A DNA stretch of 64,000 bases from NCBI GenBank assembly GCA_963678705.1, contig OY783208.1, positions 20,052,207-20,116,206 on the forward strand, given 5' to 3'. Made by a program: the position numbers and the translations under genes. Under the pieces are notes generated by a model that worked only from the letters and a program-made list of their open reading frames with translations, did no database searches and was not told the DNA's origin. Shown here piece after piece: positions 43,971 through 59,808 of this stretch (positions within the stretch are counted from its first letter, which is position 1; every line of letters begins with the position of its first letter). Source of the stretch: Panorpa germanica. Its lineage: Eukaryota; Arthropoda; Insecta; Mecoptera; Panorpidae.

Positions 43971-43976
43971 GGAACA
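43971..43976 (+). other. 6-bp target duplication, left
   Basis: GGAACA, repeated at 59803-59808. Joining the flanks with one copy restores uninterrupted BEL pol sequence, so this is a true insertion-site duplication. Six bp is the size known for Polinton/Maverick elements. Confidence 0.85.
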
Positions 43977-44042
43977 GTAGATGAGGAGAGCGGGTTCTAG
44001 GACAGTTTGGAGTGAGGATGCATTTAGGTCACGATATGCAGA

Positions 44043-44116
44043 GGGGGCGTGGCTAGACTTGGAAGAATGTAAAAGGGGGTAAGGGTGGGGTAAGGAGTGA
44101 GGTGGCGTGGCTAGAC
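44043..44116 (+). other. Subterminal repeated motif in the left arm
   Basis: The 16-bp motif GGxGGCGTGGCTAGAC occurs at 44043-44058 and 44101-44116 inside a G-rich strand near the element end, and is mirrored in the right arm (about 59662-59735). It is a possible binding site for a terminal protein or transposase; function not shown. Confidence 0.45.
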
Positions 44117-45128
44117 AATGGGGGGTAATAGTTGGGATAATATGAAAGAGTGAGATAGCGATATTAATTATTACGTGTGAGATACCGATATTAATTCTTA
44201 TGTTTGATTTGTTATTGGTTATAAGATTATGACAGTGTTAAATTATTTATAACAGTGTATTTATAGCGCATTCCTTCGAAATTTGTAAACAGCACATGTT
44301 CTCATGAGAAACTTTAGACACACGCGCATTAGTTCGAATGTAACTTGAAGCACACGTGTTAGCCGGCGTCAGCACATGTTCGTGTTGCGTGTTGAATACA
44401 AGCGAATATTTTCCAAACGTAGACAAATTTTTTTGTTATACATTTAATGTTTTAGTTAAATGTAGGGCCGGATTGGGTATTGTTGTATTAGATTATTTAT
44501 TTAAGTATACTAAAAGTTATAATATACGTACATTATATCATTGATGATTGTCAAAGCATACAGTTATTTTTTTATGTGTTGTAATAATCATAAAGTCTTA
44601 TAAGTCAGACAATGGTGTTGTTTTACATATATGAGGTTATAACACCACAGTAACTGTTAAAATAGTAGGAGGATATTTTATTATACAAATTTATTAGGTA
44701 GCGGTTTGATCCATATGTATGAGGCTATATAGGTTGTGGATAATAGTAGAATCACAATTAGCTAAACCAAAAGCTCTAACTTAAGTTGAAACAAACTTTT
44801 TAAAATAAAACTGCTCGAAGGGTCGGGGCCCCCGAGAATTTTATTTATTTTGAATGCGCGGGGATTATAGAATTAAGAATTGATAGTCTGATGGTAAATA
44901 TATTATAGTATTAAATAAGTAAAGTGCTACCCTGTTAAATTTTTATTAAGAATTGATAGTCTGATGATAAATATATTATAGTATTAAATAAGTAAAGTGC
45001 TACCCTGTTAAATTTTTATATTATAATTTATATATAAGTCTAAGAATATGATTGTATTACATTAAGTATTGTGCTGTTTGTTTATTAAATAACTTGTGTT
45101 TTTAAATAATTTAGTGGCTATATAGTGC

Positions 45129-45166
<38 letters not shown>

Positions 45167-45414
45167 TCAATAATTTCAGTTTGGAAGTGGATAATTATGC
45201 GGTAAGTAAATTTTGTATAAGATTTTGTATGTTTACAATAAATTTAATAGTAGTTTTCAAATATTACAGGTGTCTATAGCAGTTTCAACCTAATCTTGAG
45301 TTTTTACCGTTTGAACCCTTTTAGACTTTCATACTTATGAGCAAACAGTTAGGTAAGTTAATTTTTAATACTTTTTAGATAATTTTAATTTAGTTATAAT
45401 AATAACAGTTTTAA

Positions 45415-46772
45415 ATGTCAACAGAATATTGCTGTGCATATCTGTATTCCGATGATACATTGGATTATACGTGCCCAACAATAGTTCATCCTGGAGTACA
45501 AGTAAGTTCTACTTCTTTGTGCGATTGATTGTAACAACTACCACCTTGCAGAAAGAATCTTGGGACAATAATTTTTATGAGTGTTTTATTAAAAATAATA
45601 TAAATAACCATATTGATTTAAATAATAATTTTAGCCATATATCATCAAAAATAAACTTGGAACTGTTGGAACAAGAAATAAAAATTTTGTGCATAGACTT
45701 TTTTAAAATTAAATTATACAATAACGCTCAAGAATATATATATATATATATAACTTATCAAAAAATGGAATCGATTTTTGATTTGGAAGATTTATTATTT
45801 GTAAAAAATATTCATATTGATGATAGCGAGCTATTAAATTTAGATATTGACCCTTCGCTTTTTGATGAAGATTTTTCATTACCTGAGTTATTAAATTCAG
45901 ATATTCATATTGATGATAGCGAGCTATTAAATTTAGATATTGACCCTTTGCTTTTTGATGAAGATTTTTCATTACCTGAATTATTAAATTCAGATATTCA
46001 TATTGATGATAGCGAGCTATTAAATTTAGATATTGACCCTTCGCTTTTTGATGAAGATTTTTCATTACCTGAGTTATTTAATTCAGATATTGAGATACAG
46101 AATATGTCTGAAATTACAACTTCTTTAAACAATGAGGATGATTTTAATACAAATTTGACTCCTTCTAAATTGACTGCAGTTCCATTTTTATTTAATGAAG
46201 CACCTATGTTATTAAAAAAAGATATGTATTTTATCAAAATAGGTTTAAATTGTATTAATCAGTTTGAACCAGAAATTTACATATATAATAAATATAATTT
46301 TGGACTAAAGTTAAGTTTATGTGATTATTTTGAGCTTATAGAGCATATTAAGCAATTGATTAATATGTTTAATGGTCAATTGGTAATACCATCGAATATA
46401 TTAATAGGAACAAACTATAAAATAAATATCTTTAATCCAAATAGTATTGCAATTATTTCAAATTGTAAAACTCAAATATCAGTATTTTTAAATATTTTTG
46501 ATTTAATACATTTCTTATCCTTAAATGATTATATTAATGCTATTGGTAAACATTTTTCTGAAATGCAAATTGATTTGTTTAATACATATAATATATTTTT
46601 AAATAGTATTGTAATGTATTTAAAAAATAAAAATATTGGTGTTTCGAAAAAGATTTTGACTCAATTTTTATTTTACGAATGTGAAGAGTTAAATTCTAAT
46701 GATATATTATTAAAAATGATAATAATTTCAAACATGTCGTATATATTAGAAGAAATATCAAAACTATTGTAA
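45415..46772 (+). CDS. Spliced acidic repeat protein, left arm
   Basis: Exon 1 (45415-45501) starts MSTEYCCAYLYSDD and ends at GTAAGT. A 50-bp intron ends TTGCAG at 45551, and exon 2 (45552-46772) continues in frame, about 435 aa in all. Residues from about 105 contain three tandem 31-residue acidic repeats (units built on DSELLNLDIDPSLFDEDFS), followed by a hydrophobic/asparagine-rich region with no known domain. Further splice-like signals upstream (45210, 45270, 45351) suggest 5' UTR introns. The frame crosses a TA dinucleotide run at about 45735-45752 that is 18 bp here but 34 bp in the right arm. Function unknown; the acidic repeats could suit an activation or protein-binding role. Confidence 0.6.
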
Positions 46773-56907: not shown

Positions 56908-56959
56908 AAGAATTATATACATTTTAAATTTATATATATATATATTATAAATTAAGTAA

Positions 56960-57978
56960 TTACAATAGTTTTGATATTTCTTCTAATATATACGACATGT
57001 TTGAAATTATTATCATTTTTAATAATATATCATTAGAATTTAACTCTTCACATTCGTAAAATAAAAATTGAGTCAAAATCTTTTTCGAAACACCAATATT
57101 TTTATTTTTTAAATACATTACAATACTATTTAAAAATATATTATATGTATTAAACAAATCAATTTGCATTTCAGAAAAATGTTTACCAATAGCATTAATA
57201 TAATCATTTAAGGATAAGAAATGTATTAAATCAAAAATATTTAAAAATACTGATATTTGAGTTTTACAATTTGAAATAATTGCAATACTATTTGGATTAA
57301 AGATATTTATTTTATAGTTTGTTCCTATTAATATATTCGATGGTATTACCAATTGACCATTAAACATATTAATCAATTGCTTAATATGCTCTATAAGCTC
57401 AAAATAATCACATAAACTTAACTTTAGTCCAAAATTATATTTATTATATATGTAAATTTCTGGTTCAAACTGATTAATACAATTTAAACCTATTTTGATA
57501 AAATACATATCTTTTTTTAATAACATAGGTGCTTCATTAAATAAAAATGGAACTGCAGTCAATTTAGAAGGAGTCAAATTTGTATTAAAATCATCCTCAT
57601 TGTTTAAAGAAGTTGTAATTTCAGACATATTCTGTATCTCAATATCTGAATTAAATAACTCAGGTAATGAAAAATCTTCATCAAAAAGCGAAGGGTCAAT
57701 ATCTAAATTTAATAGCTCGCTATCATCAATATGAATATCTGAATTTAATAATTCAGGTAATGAAAAATCTTCATCAAAAAGCAAAGGGTCAATATCTAAA
57801 TTTAATAGCTCGCTATCATCAATATGAATATCTGAATTTAATAACTCAGGTAATGAAAAATCTTCATCAAAAAGCGAAGGGTCAATATCTAAATTTAATA
57901 GCTCGCTATCATCAATATGAATATTTTTTACAAATAATAAATCTTCCAAATCAAAAATCGATTCCATTTTTTGATAAG

Positions 57979-58016
<38 letters not shown>

Positions 58017-58333
58017 TTGAGCGTTATTGTATAATTTAATTTTAAAAAAGTCTATGCACAAAATTTTTATTTCTTGTTCCAACAGTTCCAAGTTTATTTT
58101 TGATGATATATGGCTAAAATTATTATTTAAATCAATATGGTTATTTATATTATTTTTAATAAAACACTCATAAAAATTATTGTCCCAAGATTCTTTCTGC
58201 AAGGTGGTAGTTGTTACAATCAATCGCACAAAGAAGTAGAACTTACTTGTACTCCAGGATGAACTATTGTTGGACACGTATAATCCAATGTATCATCGGA
58301 ATACAGATATGCACAGCAATATTCTGTTGACAT
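56960..58333 (-). pseudogene. Spliced acidic repeat protein gene, right arm, frame broken by TA run
   Basis: Exon 1 is 58333-58247 and the 50-bp intron 58246-58197 has intact GT-AG signals, as in the left arm. The TA run at 57980-58013 is 16 bp longer, shifting frame, so the N-terminal part ends soon after the run (ORF to 57951). The repeat-containing part could start at its own Met at 57967 (335 aa, MESIFDLEDLL). It may therefore yield a shorter protein or none. Confidence 0.6.
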
Positions 58334-59802
58334 TTAAAACTGTTATTATTATAACTAAATTAAAATTATCTAAAAAGTATTAAAAATTAACTTACCTAAC
58401 TGTTTGCTCATAAGTATGAAAGTCTAAAAGGGTTCAAACGGTAAAAACTCAAGATTAGGTTGAAACTGCTATAGACACCTGTAATATTTAAAAACTACTA
58501 TTAAATTTATTGTAAACATACAAAATCTTATACAAAATTTACTTACCGCATAATTATCCACTTCCAAACTGAAATTATTGATAAAATTTTTTTTTTTTTT
58601 TTTTTTTTTTAAAATAGCACTATATAGCCACTAAATTATTTAAAAACACAAGTTATTTAATAAACAAACTGCACAATACTTAATGTAACACAAATCATAT
58701 TCTTAGACTTATATATAAATTATAATATAAAAATTTAACAGGGTAGCACTTTACTTATTTAATACTATAATATATTTATCATCAGACTATCAATTCTTAA
58801 TAAAAATTTAACAGGGTAGCACTTTACTTATTTAATACTATAATATATTTACCATCAGACTATCAATTCTTAATTCTATGATCCCCGCGCATTCAAAATA
58901 AATAAAATTCTCGGGAGCCCCGACCCTTCGAGCAGTTTTATTTTAAAAAGTTTGTTTCAACTTAAGTTAGAGCTTTTGGTTTAGCTAATTGTGATTCTAC
59001 TATTATCCACAACCTATATAGCCTCATACATATGGATCAAACCGCTACCTAATAAATTTGTATAATAAAATATCCTCCTAATATTTTAACAGTTACTGTG
59101 GTGTTATAACCTCATATATGTAAAACAACACCATTGTCTGACTTATAAGACTTTATGATTATTACAACACATAAAAAAATAACTGTATGCTTTGACAATC
59201 ATCAATGATATAATGTACGTATATTATAACTTTTAGTATACTTAAATAAATAATCTAATACAACAATACCCAATCCGGCCCTACATTTAACTAAAACATT
59301 AAATGTATAACAAAAAAATTTGTCTACGTTTGGAAAATATTCGCTTGTATTCAACACGTTCCCATAAGAATAATTTATATACAAAGTTCTCATGAGAACA
59401 TGTGCTGACGCCGGCTAACACGTGTGCTTCAAGTTACATTCGAACTAATGCGCGTGTGTCTAAAGTTTCTCATGAGAACATGTGCTGTTTACAAATTTCG
59501 AAGGAATGCGCTATAAATACACTGTTATAAATAATTTAACACTGTCATAATCTTATAACCAATAACAAATCAAACATAAGAATTAATATCGGTATCTCAC
59601 ACGTAATAATTAATATCGCTATCTCACTCTTTCATATTATCCCAACTATTACCCCCCATTGTCTAGCCACGCCACCTCACTCCTTACCCCACCCTTACCC
59701 CCTTTTACATTCTTCCAAGTCTAGCCACGCCCCCTCTGCATATCGTGACCTAAATGCATCCTCACTCCAAACTGTCCTAGAACCCGCTCTCCTCATCTAT
59801 TT

Positions 59803-59808
59803 GGAACA
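59803..59808 (+). other. 6-bp target duplication, right
   Basis: GGAACA, matching 43971-43976. Confidence 0.85.

What the first reader, a model, noticed from the sequence alone, without database searches (positions are those of the whole stretch)
43971..59808. 15.8-kb near-perfect palindrome with a 6-bp target duplication
Two arms of about 7.9 kb in inverted orientation make up essentially the whole insertion, flanked by GGAACA, and the host BEL frame resumes on the other side. Family B polymerase pieces and the 6-bp duplication fit Polinton/Maverick-like biology (family knowledge), but normal Polintons have unique interiors between inverted ends. A fully palindromic, apparently dimeric element integrated as one unit is unusual and could be a new nonautonomous form that borrows polymerase and integrase in trans.
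Basis: partly seen in the sequence, partly recalled or inferred. Interest (0 to 1): 0.93.

Follow-up and report, generated by a model that had tools for sequence, protein, structure and literature searches.

The report
Palindromic Polinton family in an insect
A virus-like jumping element in what looks like an insect genome has become a near-perfect mirror image of itself and sits at many places in that form, with its two halves apparently kept alike as it multiplies, which is an unusual way of life for a transposon and resembles the snap-back helper-dependent genomes of some viruses.

Summary
It is not unique. The same 464-Mb assembly holds a large Polinton/Maverick family; I read palindromic centres at 27 loci, and 7 palindromes with both ends read have perfect 6-bp duplications. 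Complete-type ~16-kb relatives encode integrase, double-jelly-roll capsid, A32-like ATPase and polymerase. The window copy shows no integrase or capsid match and a broken polymerase; another class keeps an open integrase frame in each arm. In a 627-bp stretch at 22 loci, 30 of the 31 variants present in both arms of some locus occur nowhere in one arm only, and 25 one-arm variants are all private: arms probably were identical at insertion and evolve together. Best reading: snap-back derivatives, formed about a repeat array near mid-genome, that spread as palindromes and are mobilised largely in trans. Snap-back origin and trans-mobilisation are inferred. New variant of a known kind.

The parts
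43429..43975 (+). host Pao/BEL retrotransposon frame interrupted by the insertion
   Evidence: Pfam Peptidase_A17 3.6e-13 for 43429-43977; frame resumes after the insert for 30 codons
43970..43975 (.). left copy of 6-bp target duplication TGGAAC
43976..59801 (.). whole palindromic element, 15,826 bp
43976..51830 (+). left arm
51831..51901 (.). asymmetric centre (about 71 bp) inside modules of a 22-bp repeat
51902..59801 (-). right arm, inverted copy
43978..44381 (+). outer terminal repeat, identical to 59396-59799
   Evidence: 100% over 404 bp
59396..59799 (-). outer terminal repeat of the right arm
45456..46772 (+). 438-aa frame (stop to stop) with 93-bp in-frame repeats; no relative at E <= 0.001
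56960..58051 (-). right-arm copy of that frame (363 aa)
46987..47456 (+). first copy of a polymerase fragment duplicated within the arm (second: 50133-50603)
   Evidence: 99.4%; matches polymerase residues 382-561 of a complete-type relative
56276..56745 (-). right-arm copy of the first polymerase fragment
47445..47888 (+). acidic frame also present in the left end of a complete-type relative
   Evidence: tblastn of the L014 134-aa frame, 80%
55844..56287 (-). right-arm copy of the acidic frame
47944..48372 (+). 142-aa frame, 99% identical to one in a complete-type relative
55360..55788 (-). right-arm copy of the 142-aa frame
49812..51245 (+). broken polymerase: pieces matching residues 304-438 and 476-612 of the long part and 107-261 of the C-terminal part; the stretch between is absent
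52487..53920 (-). same broken polymerase in the right arm
51341..51442 (+). 34-residue scrap of the packaging-ATPase gene next to the centre
   Evidence: 94% to ATPase residues 179-212
52290..52391 (-). same ATPase scrap in the right arm
51721..52011 (.). central 22-bp repeat modules in both orientations
59802..59807 (.). right copy of 6-bp target duplication TGGAAC

Best explanation
This is one copy of a family of palindromic derivatives of a Polinton/Maverick (virus-like self-synthesising transposon) resident in the same genome. A snap-back event about a 22-bp repeat array that lies near mid-genome, just 3' of the ATPase gene, turned a left half into a left-left inverted dimer with two ordinary ends. 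That palindrome then spread as a unit and exchanged cargo with complete-type relatives (integrase, capsid gene or only fragments in the arms). Each cycle the displaced strand probably folds into a near-perfect hairpin; repair or copying of that hairpin makes the arms identical again. An integrase of the family inserts the linear palindrome with a 6-bp duplication. The window copy must use polymerase and integrase made elsewhere. Shown: the palindrome, 6-bp duplications at several palindromes, the palindromic centre at 27 loci, co-resident complete-type relatives, and one-arm variants that are private to single loci. Inferred: arms identical at insertion, snap-back origin, hairpin repair, trans-mobilisation, packaging.
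For: Palindrome and duplication. Same centre in inverted pairs at 19 loci with both arms; 27 palindromic loci read in all. On contig C1, 16 of 37 end-paired elements hold the centre motif, and in 10 of those 16 it lies within 50 bp of the exact midpoint (two of the 10 have the exact motif in one orientation only). Perfect 6-bp duplications in 7 palindromes with centre and both ends read. Arms in concert in a 627-bp stretch of 22 loci: 18 variants shared by two or more loci always in both arms, 12 private in both arms, 25 private in one arm, 0 shared in one arm only, 1 mixed. Ends in concert: 34 of 39 end pairs have the same 25-mer, against 2% between elements. Complete-type relative: DJR capsid 1.2e-109, rve 3.3e-16, A32 5.6e-8, phospholipase domain 1.1e-17. 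Related 22-bp array 3' of the ATPase in 5 of 6 complete-type relatives looked at; ATPase scrap beside the window's centre, and the C95 palindrome's arms hold capsid and ATPase pieces in the order of a left half.
Against: No reads, no extrachromosomal DNA and no mobilisation assay: trans-action and the replication form are unproved. The concert test covers 627 bp beside the centre, not whole arms. Arm differences in the window are not uniform: 1 of 20 events lies in 45735-51164, 69% of the arm (0 of 20,000 random draws as extreme), which points to gene conversion after insertion or to assembly collapse and weakens the replication-reset argument. Two elements expected to be palindromic were not at the expected centre (L033, L034), and one of these has no duplication (C3:17800220-17811967, 2 of 6). 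Of 29 centre-motif clusters on C1, 11 have the exact motif in one orientation only; two end-paired elements (C1:350707-363016, C1:8961781-8975320) have it in one orientation and off the midpoint, so single-arm forms may exist (not read). C1:5327977-5343342 has the centre at its midpoint but a listed polymerase hit only in the right arm. The 22-bp array of the relatives is in one orientation, differs by 2-6 of 22 bases, and was absent in 1 of 6. No profile library recognised the polymerase.
Confidence: 0.67

Rival explanations
1. The palindromes are copied as units and their arms are kept alike by ordinary gene conversion between the arms while sitting in the chromosome, as in sex-chromosome palindromes; replication has no special reset.
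For: Clustered arm differences in the window with a 5.4-kb nearly identical stretch; one-arm private variants occur at several loci, so arms do drift after insertion.
Against: Structural changes (471-bp duplication and polymerase losses in the window, integrase in C1:22180335) are in both arms; the two ends of elements in general, palindromic or not, match each other (34 of 39 pairs), which suggests a replication-linked process; 15 of 22 loci have identical arms in the tested stretch.
Confidence: 0.2
2. Each palindrome arose independently by dimerisation of a single-arm precursor just before it inserted; the palindrome itself is never inherited.
For: Identical arms at insertion with locus-specific variants in both arms are what this predicts. 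Possible single-arm forms exist: 11 of 29 motif clusters on C1 have the exact motif in one orientation, two of them inside end-paired elements off the midpoint, and 3 of the 22 loci compared gave one arm.
Against: The same centre is used at the 19 loci with both arms, and centre module arrangements are shared by groups of loci. Two of the three one-arm loci still have modules of both orientations, so they may be truncated palindromes.
Confidence: 0.13
3. Assembly or read artefact (fold-back chimeras, or graph collapse copying one arm twice).
For: Near-identical arms are what such artefacts give; L016 and L026 hold 200 N each, so the assembly has gaps in such places.
Against: Different flanking sequences joined by a perfect 6-bp duplication at 7 palindromes; centre motif at the exact midpoint in 10 of 16 C1 elements; arms differ by substitutions at 7 of 22 loci. 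Collapse could still exaggerate arm identity.
Confidence: 0.04
4. Foldback-type DNA transposon (FB/Galileo-like) that captured polymerase fragments, unrelated to Polinton mobility.
For: Long internally repetitive inverted repeats make up most of the element, as in Galileo (passages of PMC3573991).
Against: 6-bp not 7-bp duplications and AGTAG-type ends as in the complete-type relatives; terminal-repeat homology to one of them at 93%; no transposase of that type among the frames scanned with Pfam.
Confidence: 0.02

Closest known systems
Polinton/Maverick (polintovirus) elements
   Same: AGT-type ends, 6-bp duplications, rve integrase with a weak chromodomain match, double-jelly-roll capsid, A32-like ATPase and polymerase in the co-resident relatives (ends and duplications as in passages of PMC8097293)
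   Different: known ones have unique interiors between terminal repeats (recalled); here the whole element is one inverted repeat, with or without a subset of genes. PMC3573991 says in passing that expansion of inverted repeats has been reported for Polintons; I did not read its sources
AAV snapback genomes (5'-SBG and 3'-SBG)
   Same: self-complementary molecules with the left or the right part of a linear DNA virus genome, symmetric or not, proposed to act as satellites (abstract and section 3.1 of PMC8235507)
   Different: AAV replicates by rolling hairpin without a polymerase of its own (recalled); those genomes were seen in virions, not as an inherited, integrated family
Symmetric adenovirus recombinants and palindromic deletion derivatives of yeast linear plasmids (recalled, no paper seen; searches listed none on them)
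   Same: protein-primed linear replicons that yield left-left palindromes
   Different: laboratory by-products, not integrated or vertically inherited
Galileo / Foldback transposons
   Same: elements made up mostly of long inverted repeats, with extension of the repeats inward (passages of PMC3573991)
   Different: P-superfamily, 7-bp duplications
Bidnaviruses
   Same: Polinton polymerase and terminal repeats in an insect virus with two segments in separate capsids (passages of PMC4061559)
   Different: single-stranded, no palindromic genome mentioned in the passages seen

Membership tests
Polinton/Maverick | 6-bp target duplication | tested here: met
   TGGAAC at the window; 6 of 6 at 7 palindromes with centre and both ends read, the window included
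Polinton/Maverick | terminal inverted repeats with AGT...ACT ends | tested here: met
   left AGTAG, right ATT instead of ACT at the window; AGTAG...CTACT at 6 other palindromes
Polinton/Maverick | own retroviral-type integrase | tested here: not met
   no integrase match in the window element; met in C1:22180335-22195876, 321 aa open in both arms, rve 2.8e-16
Polinton/Maverick | intact protein-primed family B polymerase | tested here: not met
   only pieces, middle absent; the name polymerase rests on motifs that I recall, seen in relatives; no profile hit
Polinton/Maverick | capsid genes | tested here: not met
   none in the window element; present in a complete-type relative
Polinton/Maverick (as a non-autonomous derivative) | homology to complete-type members with shared termini | tested here: met
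   terminal repeat 93% to C6:24078262-24094586, plus two frames at 80 and 99%
Foldback/Galileo | 7-bp duplication and P-type transposase | tested here: not met
   6-bp; no such domain in the frames scanned
Snapback satellite of a protein-primed replicon | replicates with helper enzymes as a self-complementary genome | not testable with these tools
   needs extrachromosomal DNA and an assay

The most novel reading that the evidence does not exclude
The family is a divided genome: palindromic segments, each carrying a different subset of the parent's genes twice (integrase class, capsid class, small-frame class) and sized like the parent, are maintained together and complement one another and the complete elements, a multipartite virus-transposon built of self-complementary segments whose two halves are re-equalised at every round of replication.
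Probability: 0.17. Interest if true: 0.93.

Novelty: new variant of a known kind. Interest (0 to 1): 0.8.

Why it matters
Palindromic subgenomes are known as products of linear DNA virus replication. Here they appear as an inherited, multi-copy transposon family with a readable record in the genome, so the formation, spread and arm-equalising of snap-back genomes can be studied by sequence alone. It offers a test of how protein-primed replicons keep their ends and arms identical, suggests satellite or defective-interfering behaviour among Polintons, and warns that annotation and assembly tools may miss or break such elements.

Tried and rejected
Considered and rejected: read chimera or artefact (flanking duplications); FB/Galileo-type element (6-bp duplications); chromosomal inverted duplication at this site (same structure at other loci); a one-off dimer (27 loci read). 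Led nowhere: Pfam and PHROGs on the window frames of the element (only weak matches below the cut-offs); a relative of the 438-aa frame (none); solved-structure hits for polymerase pieces; Pfam and NCBIfam for the polymerase (one Endonuclease_7 match, 3.1e-5); host identity (the assembly is unnamed; the named relatives I saw are insects, mostly beetles, ants and wasps, at about 50%); selection on the palindromic integrase (against three complete-type copies 0 synonymous and 0-3 non-synonymous codons, too few). The expected centres of C5:6868652-6889465 and C3:17800220-17811967 were not palindromic; I did not search for others there. No structure was predicted: the stated sources did not clearly cover these loci. 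The rival of independent dimerisation was raised from 0.10 to 0.13 and the best explanation lowered from 0.70 to 0.67 when I recounted the one-orientation centres.

Literature: ten searches of the PMC library. Six paired Polinton, Maverick or polintovirus with palindromic, palindrome, terminal inverted repeat(s), non-autonomous, inverted duplication or long inverted repeats; four asked for snap-back or palindromic forms of linear plasmids, adenovirus and parvoviruses. Among the papers listed (searches listed 15 of 41 and 12 of 22) no title describes palindromic Polintons; two searches found no paper. I saw passages of PMC8097293, PMC4061559, PMC6431247 and PMC3573991, and the abstract and section 3.1 of PMC8235507.
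Full report
What is in the window. The inverted match is real: 44388-59358 aligns to itself in reverse at 99.28% over 15,000 columns, and 43978-44381 / 59396-59799 at 100%. Outside a central stretch of about 71 bp the arms differ by 20 events, plus one in the terminal bases. It sits in a Pao/BEL frame (Peptidase_A17, 3.6e-13) that resumes for 30 codons across the empty site.

Gene content. Each arm carries a 438/363-aa frame for which the protein search found no relative, two frames shared with the left end of a complete-type relative, a 34-residue scrap of the packaging ATPase, and polymerase pieces that match residues 304-438, 382-561 and 476-612 of the long part and 107-261 of the C-terminal part of that relative; the part between is absent. 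With that relative's proteins as queries, no integrase, capsid or phospholipase match was found. A 471-bp polymerase stretch is present twice in each arm. These lesions are in both arms.

Complete-type relatives in the same genome. The window lies on contig C5 of an unnamed 464-Mb assembly in 249 contigs. C6:24078262-24094586 (16,325 bp, duplication TATATG) encodes a double-jelly-roll capsid protein (PF21738, 1.2e-109), a phospholipase A2-like domain protein (1.1e-17), an A32-like ATPase (5.6e-8) and an rve integrase (3.3e-16) with a chromodomain match below the cut-off. The polymerase is named from its position and from three motifs that I recall as those of family B (DxNNLYG, NNSVFG, YIDTDS, seen); Pfam, NCBIfam and the solved-structure library did not recognise it. 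The search for its long part gave 42 scored matches, 27 of them without a stop inside. Integrase: 124 scored matches. Capsid: 102 scored matches. These are lower bounds, since only the best candidates were scored.

A family of palindromes. A query with the stretch next to the centre found inverted pairs at many loci. Of 24 places given, two (C7, L016) gave no long enough match and 22 were compared, 19 with both arms. One search kept those 19, left out the five others and added seven places: three integrase-class loci gave both arms, three places one arm, one too little; so 22 loci have both arms. Adding C1:4667580, C20, C5:18755391, C1:7203852 and C95, whose centres are palindromic, 27 palindromic loci were read directly. 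On C1, 37 elements have paired ends; 16 contain the centre motif and in 10 of the 16 it lies within 50 bp of the exact midpoint, in two of the 10 with the exact motif in one orientation only. Of 29 motif clusters on C1, 18 have both orientations and 11 one; two of the latter lie off the midpoint in end-paired elements and may be single-arm forms, which I did not read. The motif occurs 274 + 255 times genome-wide and the end pattern 372 + 374 times, controls 0.

Insertion as units. Ten elements of the palindrome group had both ends fetched. The script found 6 of 6 matching flank bases in 8 of 10 (window, C1:4667580, C5:18755391, C5:6868652, C20, C95, C1:22180335, C1:7203852); C198 was not resolved by the script and reads TAAATT by eye, with a changed left end; C3:17800220 does not match (2 of 6). 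In C5:6868652 and C3:17800220 the expected centre was not palindromic, so 7 elements have both a demonstrated palindromic centre and a script-verified duplication. Of six relatives without a demonstrated full palindrome, the script gave 6 of 6 in four (C16, C13, C6, C8:995461); in two it picked an inner AGTAG; one of these, C3:15876517, reads CCCATA by eye.

Classes. In one class each arm has an open 321-aa integrase frame: by eye I count 17 outward-facing pairs, 34 of the 124 matches, 13 of 17 with the same score in both members. C1:22180335-22195876 (15,542 bp, duplication AACGTG) was read in its left arm, centre and right end: terminal repeat, two left-end stretches, polymerase pieces, integrase, polymerase remnant, and the same centre. 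Its integrase is identical in both arms and identical in coding sequence to that of the complete-type element in L018, so cargo moves between the forms. Three capsid pairs were listed but not read (C157, C152, C23). C95:242492-257824 has arms with pieces of capsid and ATPase genes in the order of a left half.

Arms in concert. In the 627-bp stretch beside the centre, sorted 77 variants: 18 shared by two or more loci and in both arms of each; 12 private and in both arms; 25 private and in one arm; 0 shared by loci in one arm only; 1 mixed; 21 seen only where one arm was usable, which I set aside. Mean divergence within loci 0.17%, between loci 0.69%; 15 of 22 loci have identical arms there. The simplest reading is that arms were identical when inserted and had changed together before. 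The ends behave alike: 34 of 39 neighbouring end pairs carry the same 25-mer, while two different elements share one in 2% of cases.

Origin of the centre. Five of six complete-type relatives looked at carry an array related to the 22-bp repeat (2-6 mismatches, one orientation) directly 3' of the ATPase gene, in C6 and C16 close to mid-genome. The window's centre lies next to an ATPase scrap. A snap-back there would yield a left-left dimer of about the parent's length. The seven palindromes with demonstrated centre and ends are 15,826, 15,754, 15,158, 17,099, 15,333, 15,542 and 16,754 bp; the ten midpoint-centred C1 elements run from 12,126 to 16,754. Six elements with at least two of the integrase, capsid and polymerase hits are 15.7-16.9 kb (C6, C16 and four on C1); elements with one such hit reach 21.8 kb. 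The agreement may follow from the position of the array or from packaging; I cannot tell which.

Mechanism. Most likely: protein-primed strand displacement frees a strand that folds on itself; mismatch repair or copying equalises the arms; the linear palindrome is inserted by the family's integrase. For the window copy both enzymes must come from elsewhere. The first two steps rest on general knowledge of protein-primed replicons (recalled), not on a test. Against a pure replication reset stands the window itself: 1 of 20 arm differences falls in 69% of the arm (0 of 20,000 random draws), which suggests conversion after insertion or assembly collapse in that stretch. I give gene conversion 0.2 and independent dimerisation of single-arm precursors 0.13.

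Comparison. It is not a full Polinton: tested and not met are integrase, intact polymerase and capsid genes. It is a derivative of one by ends, duplication and homology. It works most like the snapback genomes of AAV (PMC8235507) and, from memory, symmetric adenovirus recombinants; unlike these it is inherited, integrated and multi-copy. Growth of inverted repeats has been reported for Polintons according to one sentence of PMC3573991. Ten library searches listed no title on palindromic Polintons.

Noticed in passing
G000:C8:995461-1027686 (L022, L023): 32-kb composite element with duplication GTAAAT that holds a nested inverted repeat of 1.7-kb arms (cut by the fetched stretch), a second capsid gene (DJR 5.5e-114), a BIR + RING protein (3.3e-32) and a matrixin-type metalloprotease (4.4e-33).
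   Followed up: partly
genome-wide ends: The terminal 25 bases vary much between elements (44 different among the 100 listed) and look combinatorial, yet are the same at both ends of an element in 34 of 39 pairs.
   Followed up: partly
G000:C95:242492-365400: Several terminal-repeat pairs about 15.2 kb apart follow one another on a 403-kb contig, as if such elements were arrayed or segmentally duplicated.
   Followed up: no
window 45808-46091: 93-bp in-frame tandem repeats inside the 438-aa frame, retained in both arms and in L016.
   Followed up: no
G000:C1:5826315-5855794 (L009, L010): 29.5-kb member with 4.1-kb terminal repeats at 99.8% and a Pao/BEL frame of 1,652 aa inside: intermediate repeat lengths, and nesting in both directions.
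   Followed up: partly
G000:C1:5327977-5343342: Centre at the midpoint but a listed complete-type polymerase hit only in one half: a possible recombinant between palindromic and complete forms.
   Followed up: no
G000:C1:350707-363016 and C1:8961781-8975320: End-paired elements with the centre motif in one orientation only and off the midpoint: candidates for single-arm forms.
   Followed up: no
G000:C13:12210117-12214084 (L013): 3,968-bp miniature member with 451-bp terminal repeats and duplication AAGGGT.
   Followed up: no
window 12006-12526 and 16227-16814: Related repeats with an offset of about 84 bp outside the element (self-matches).
   Followed up: no
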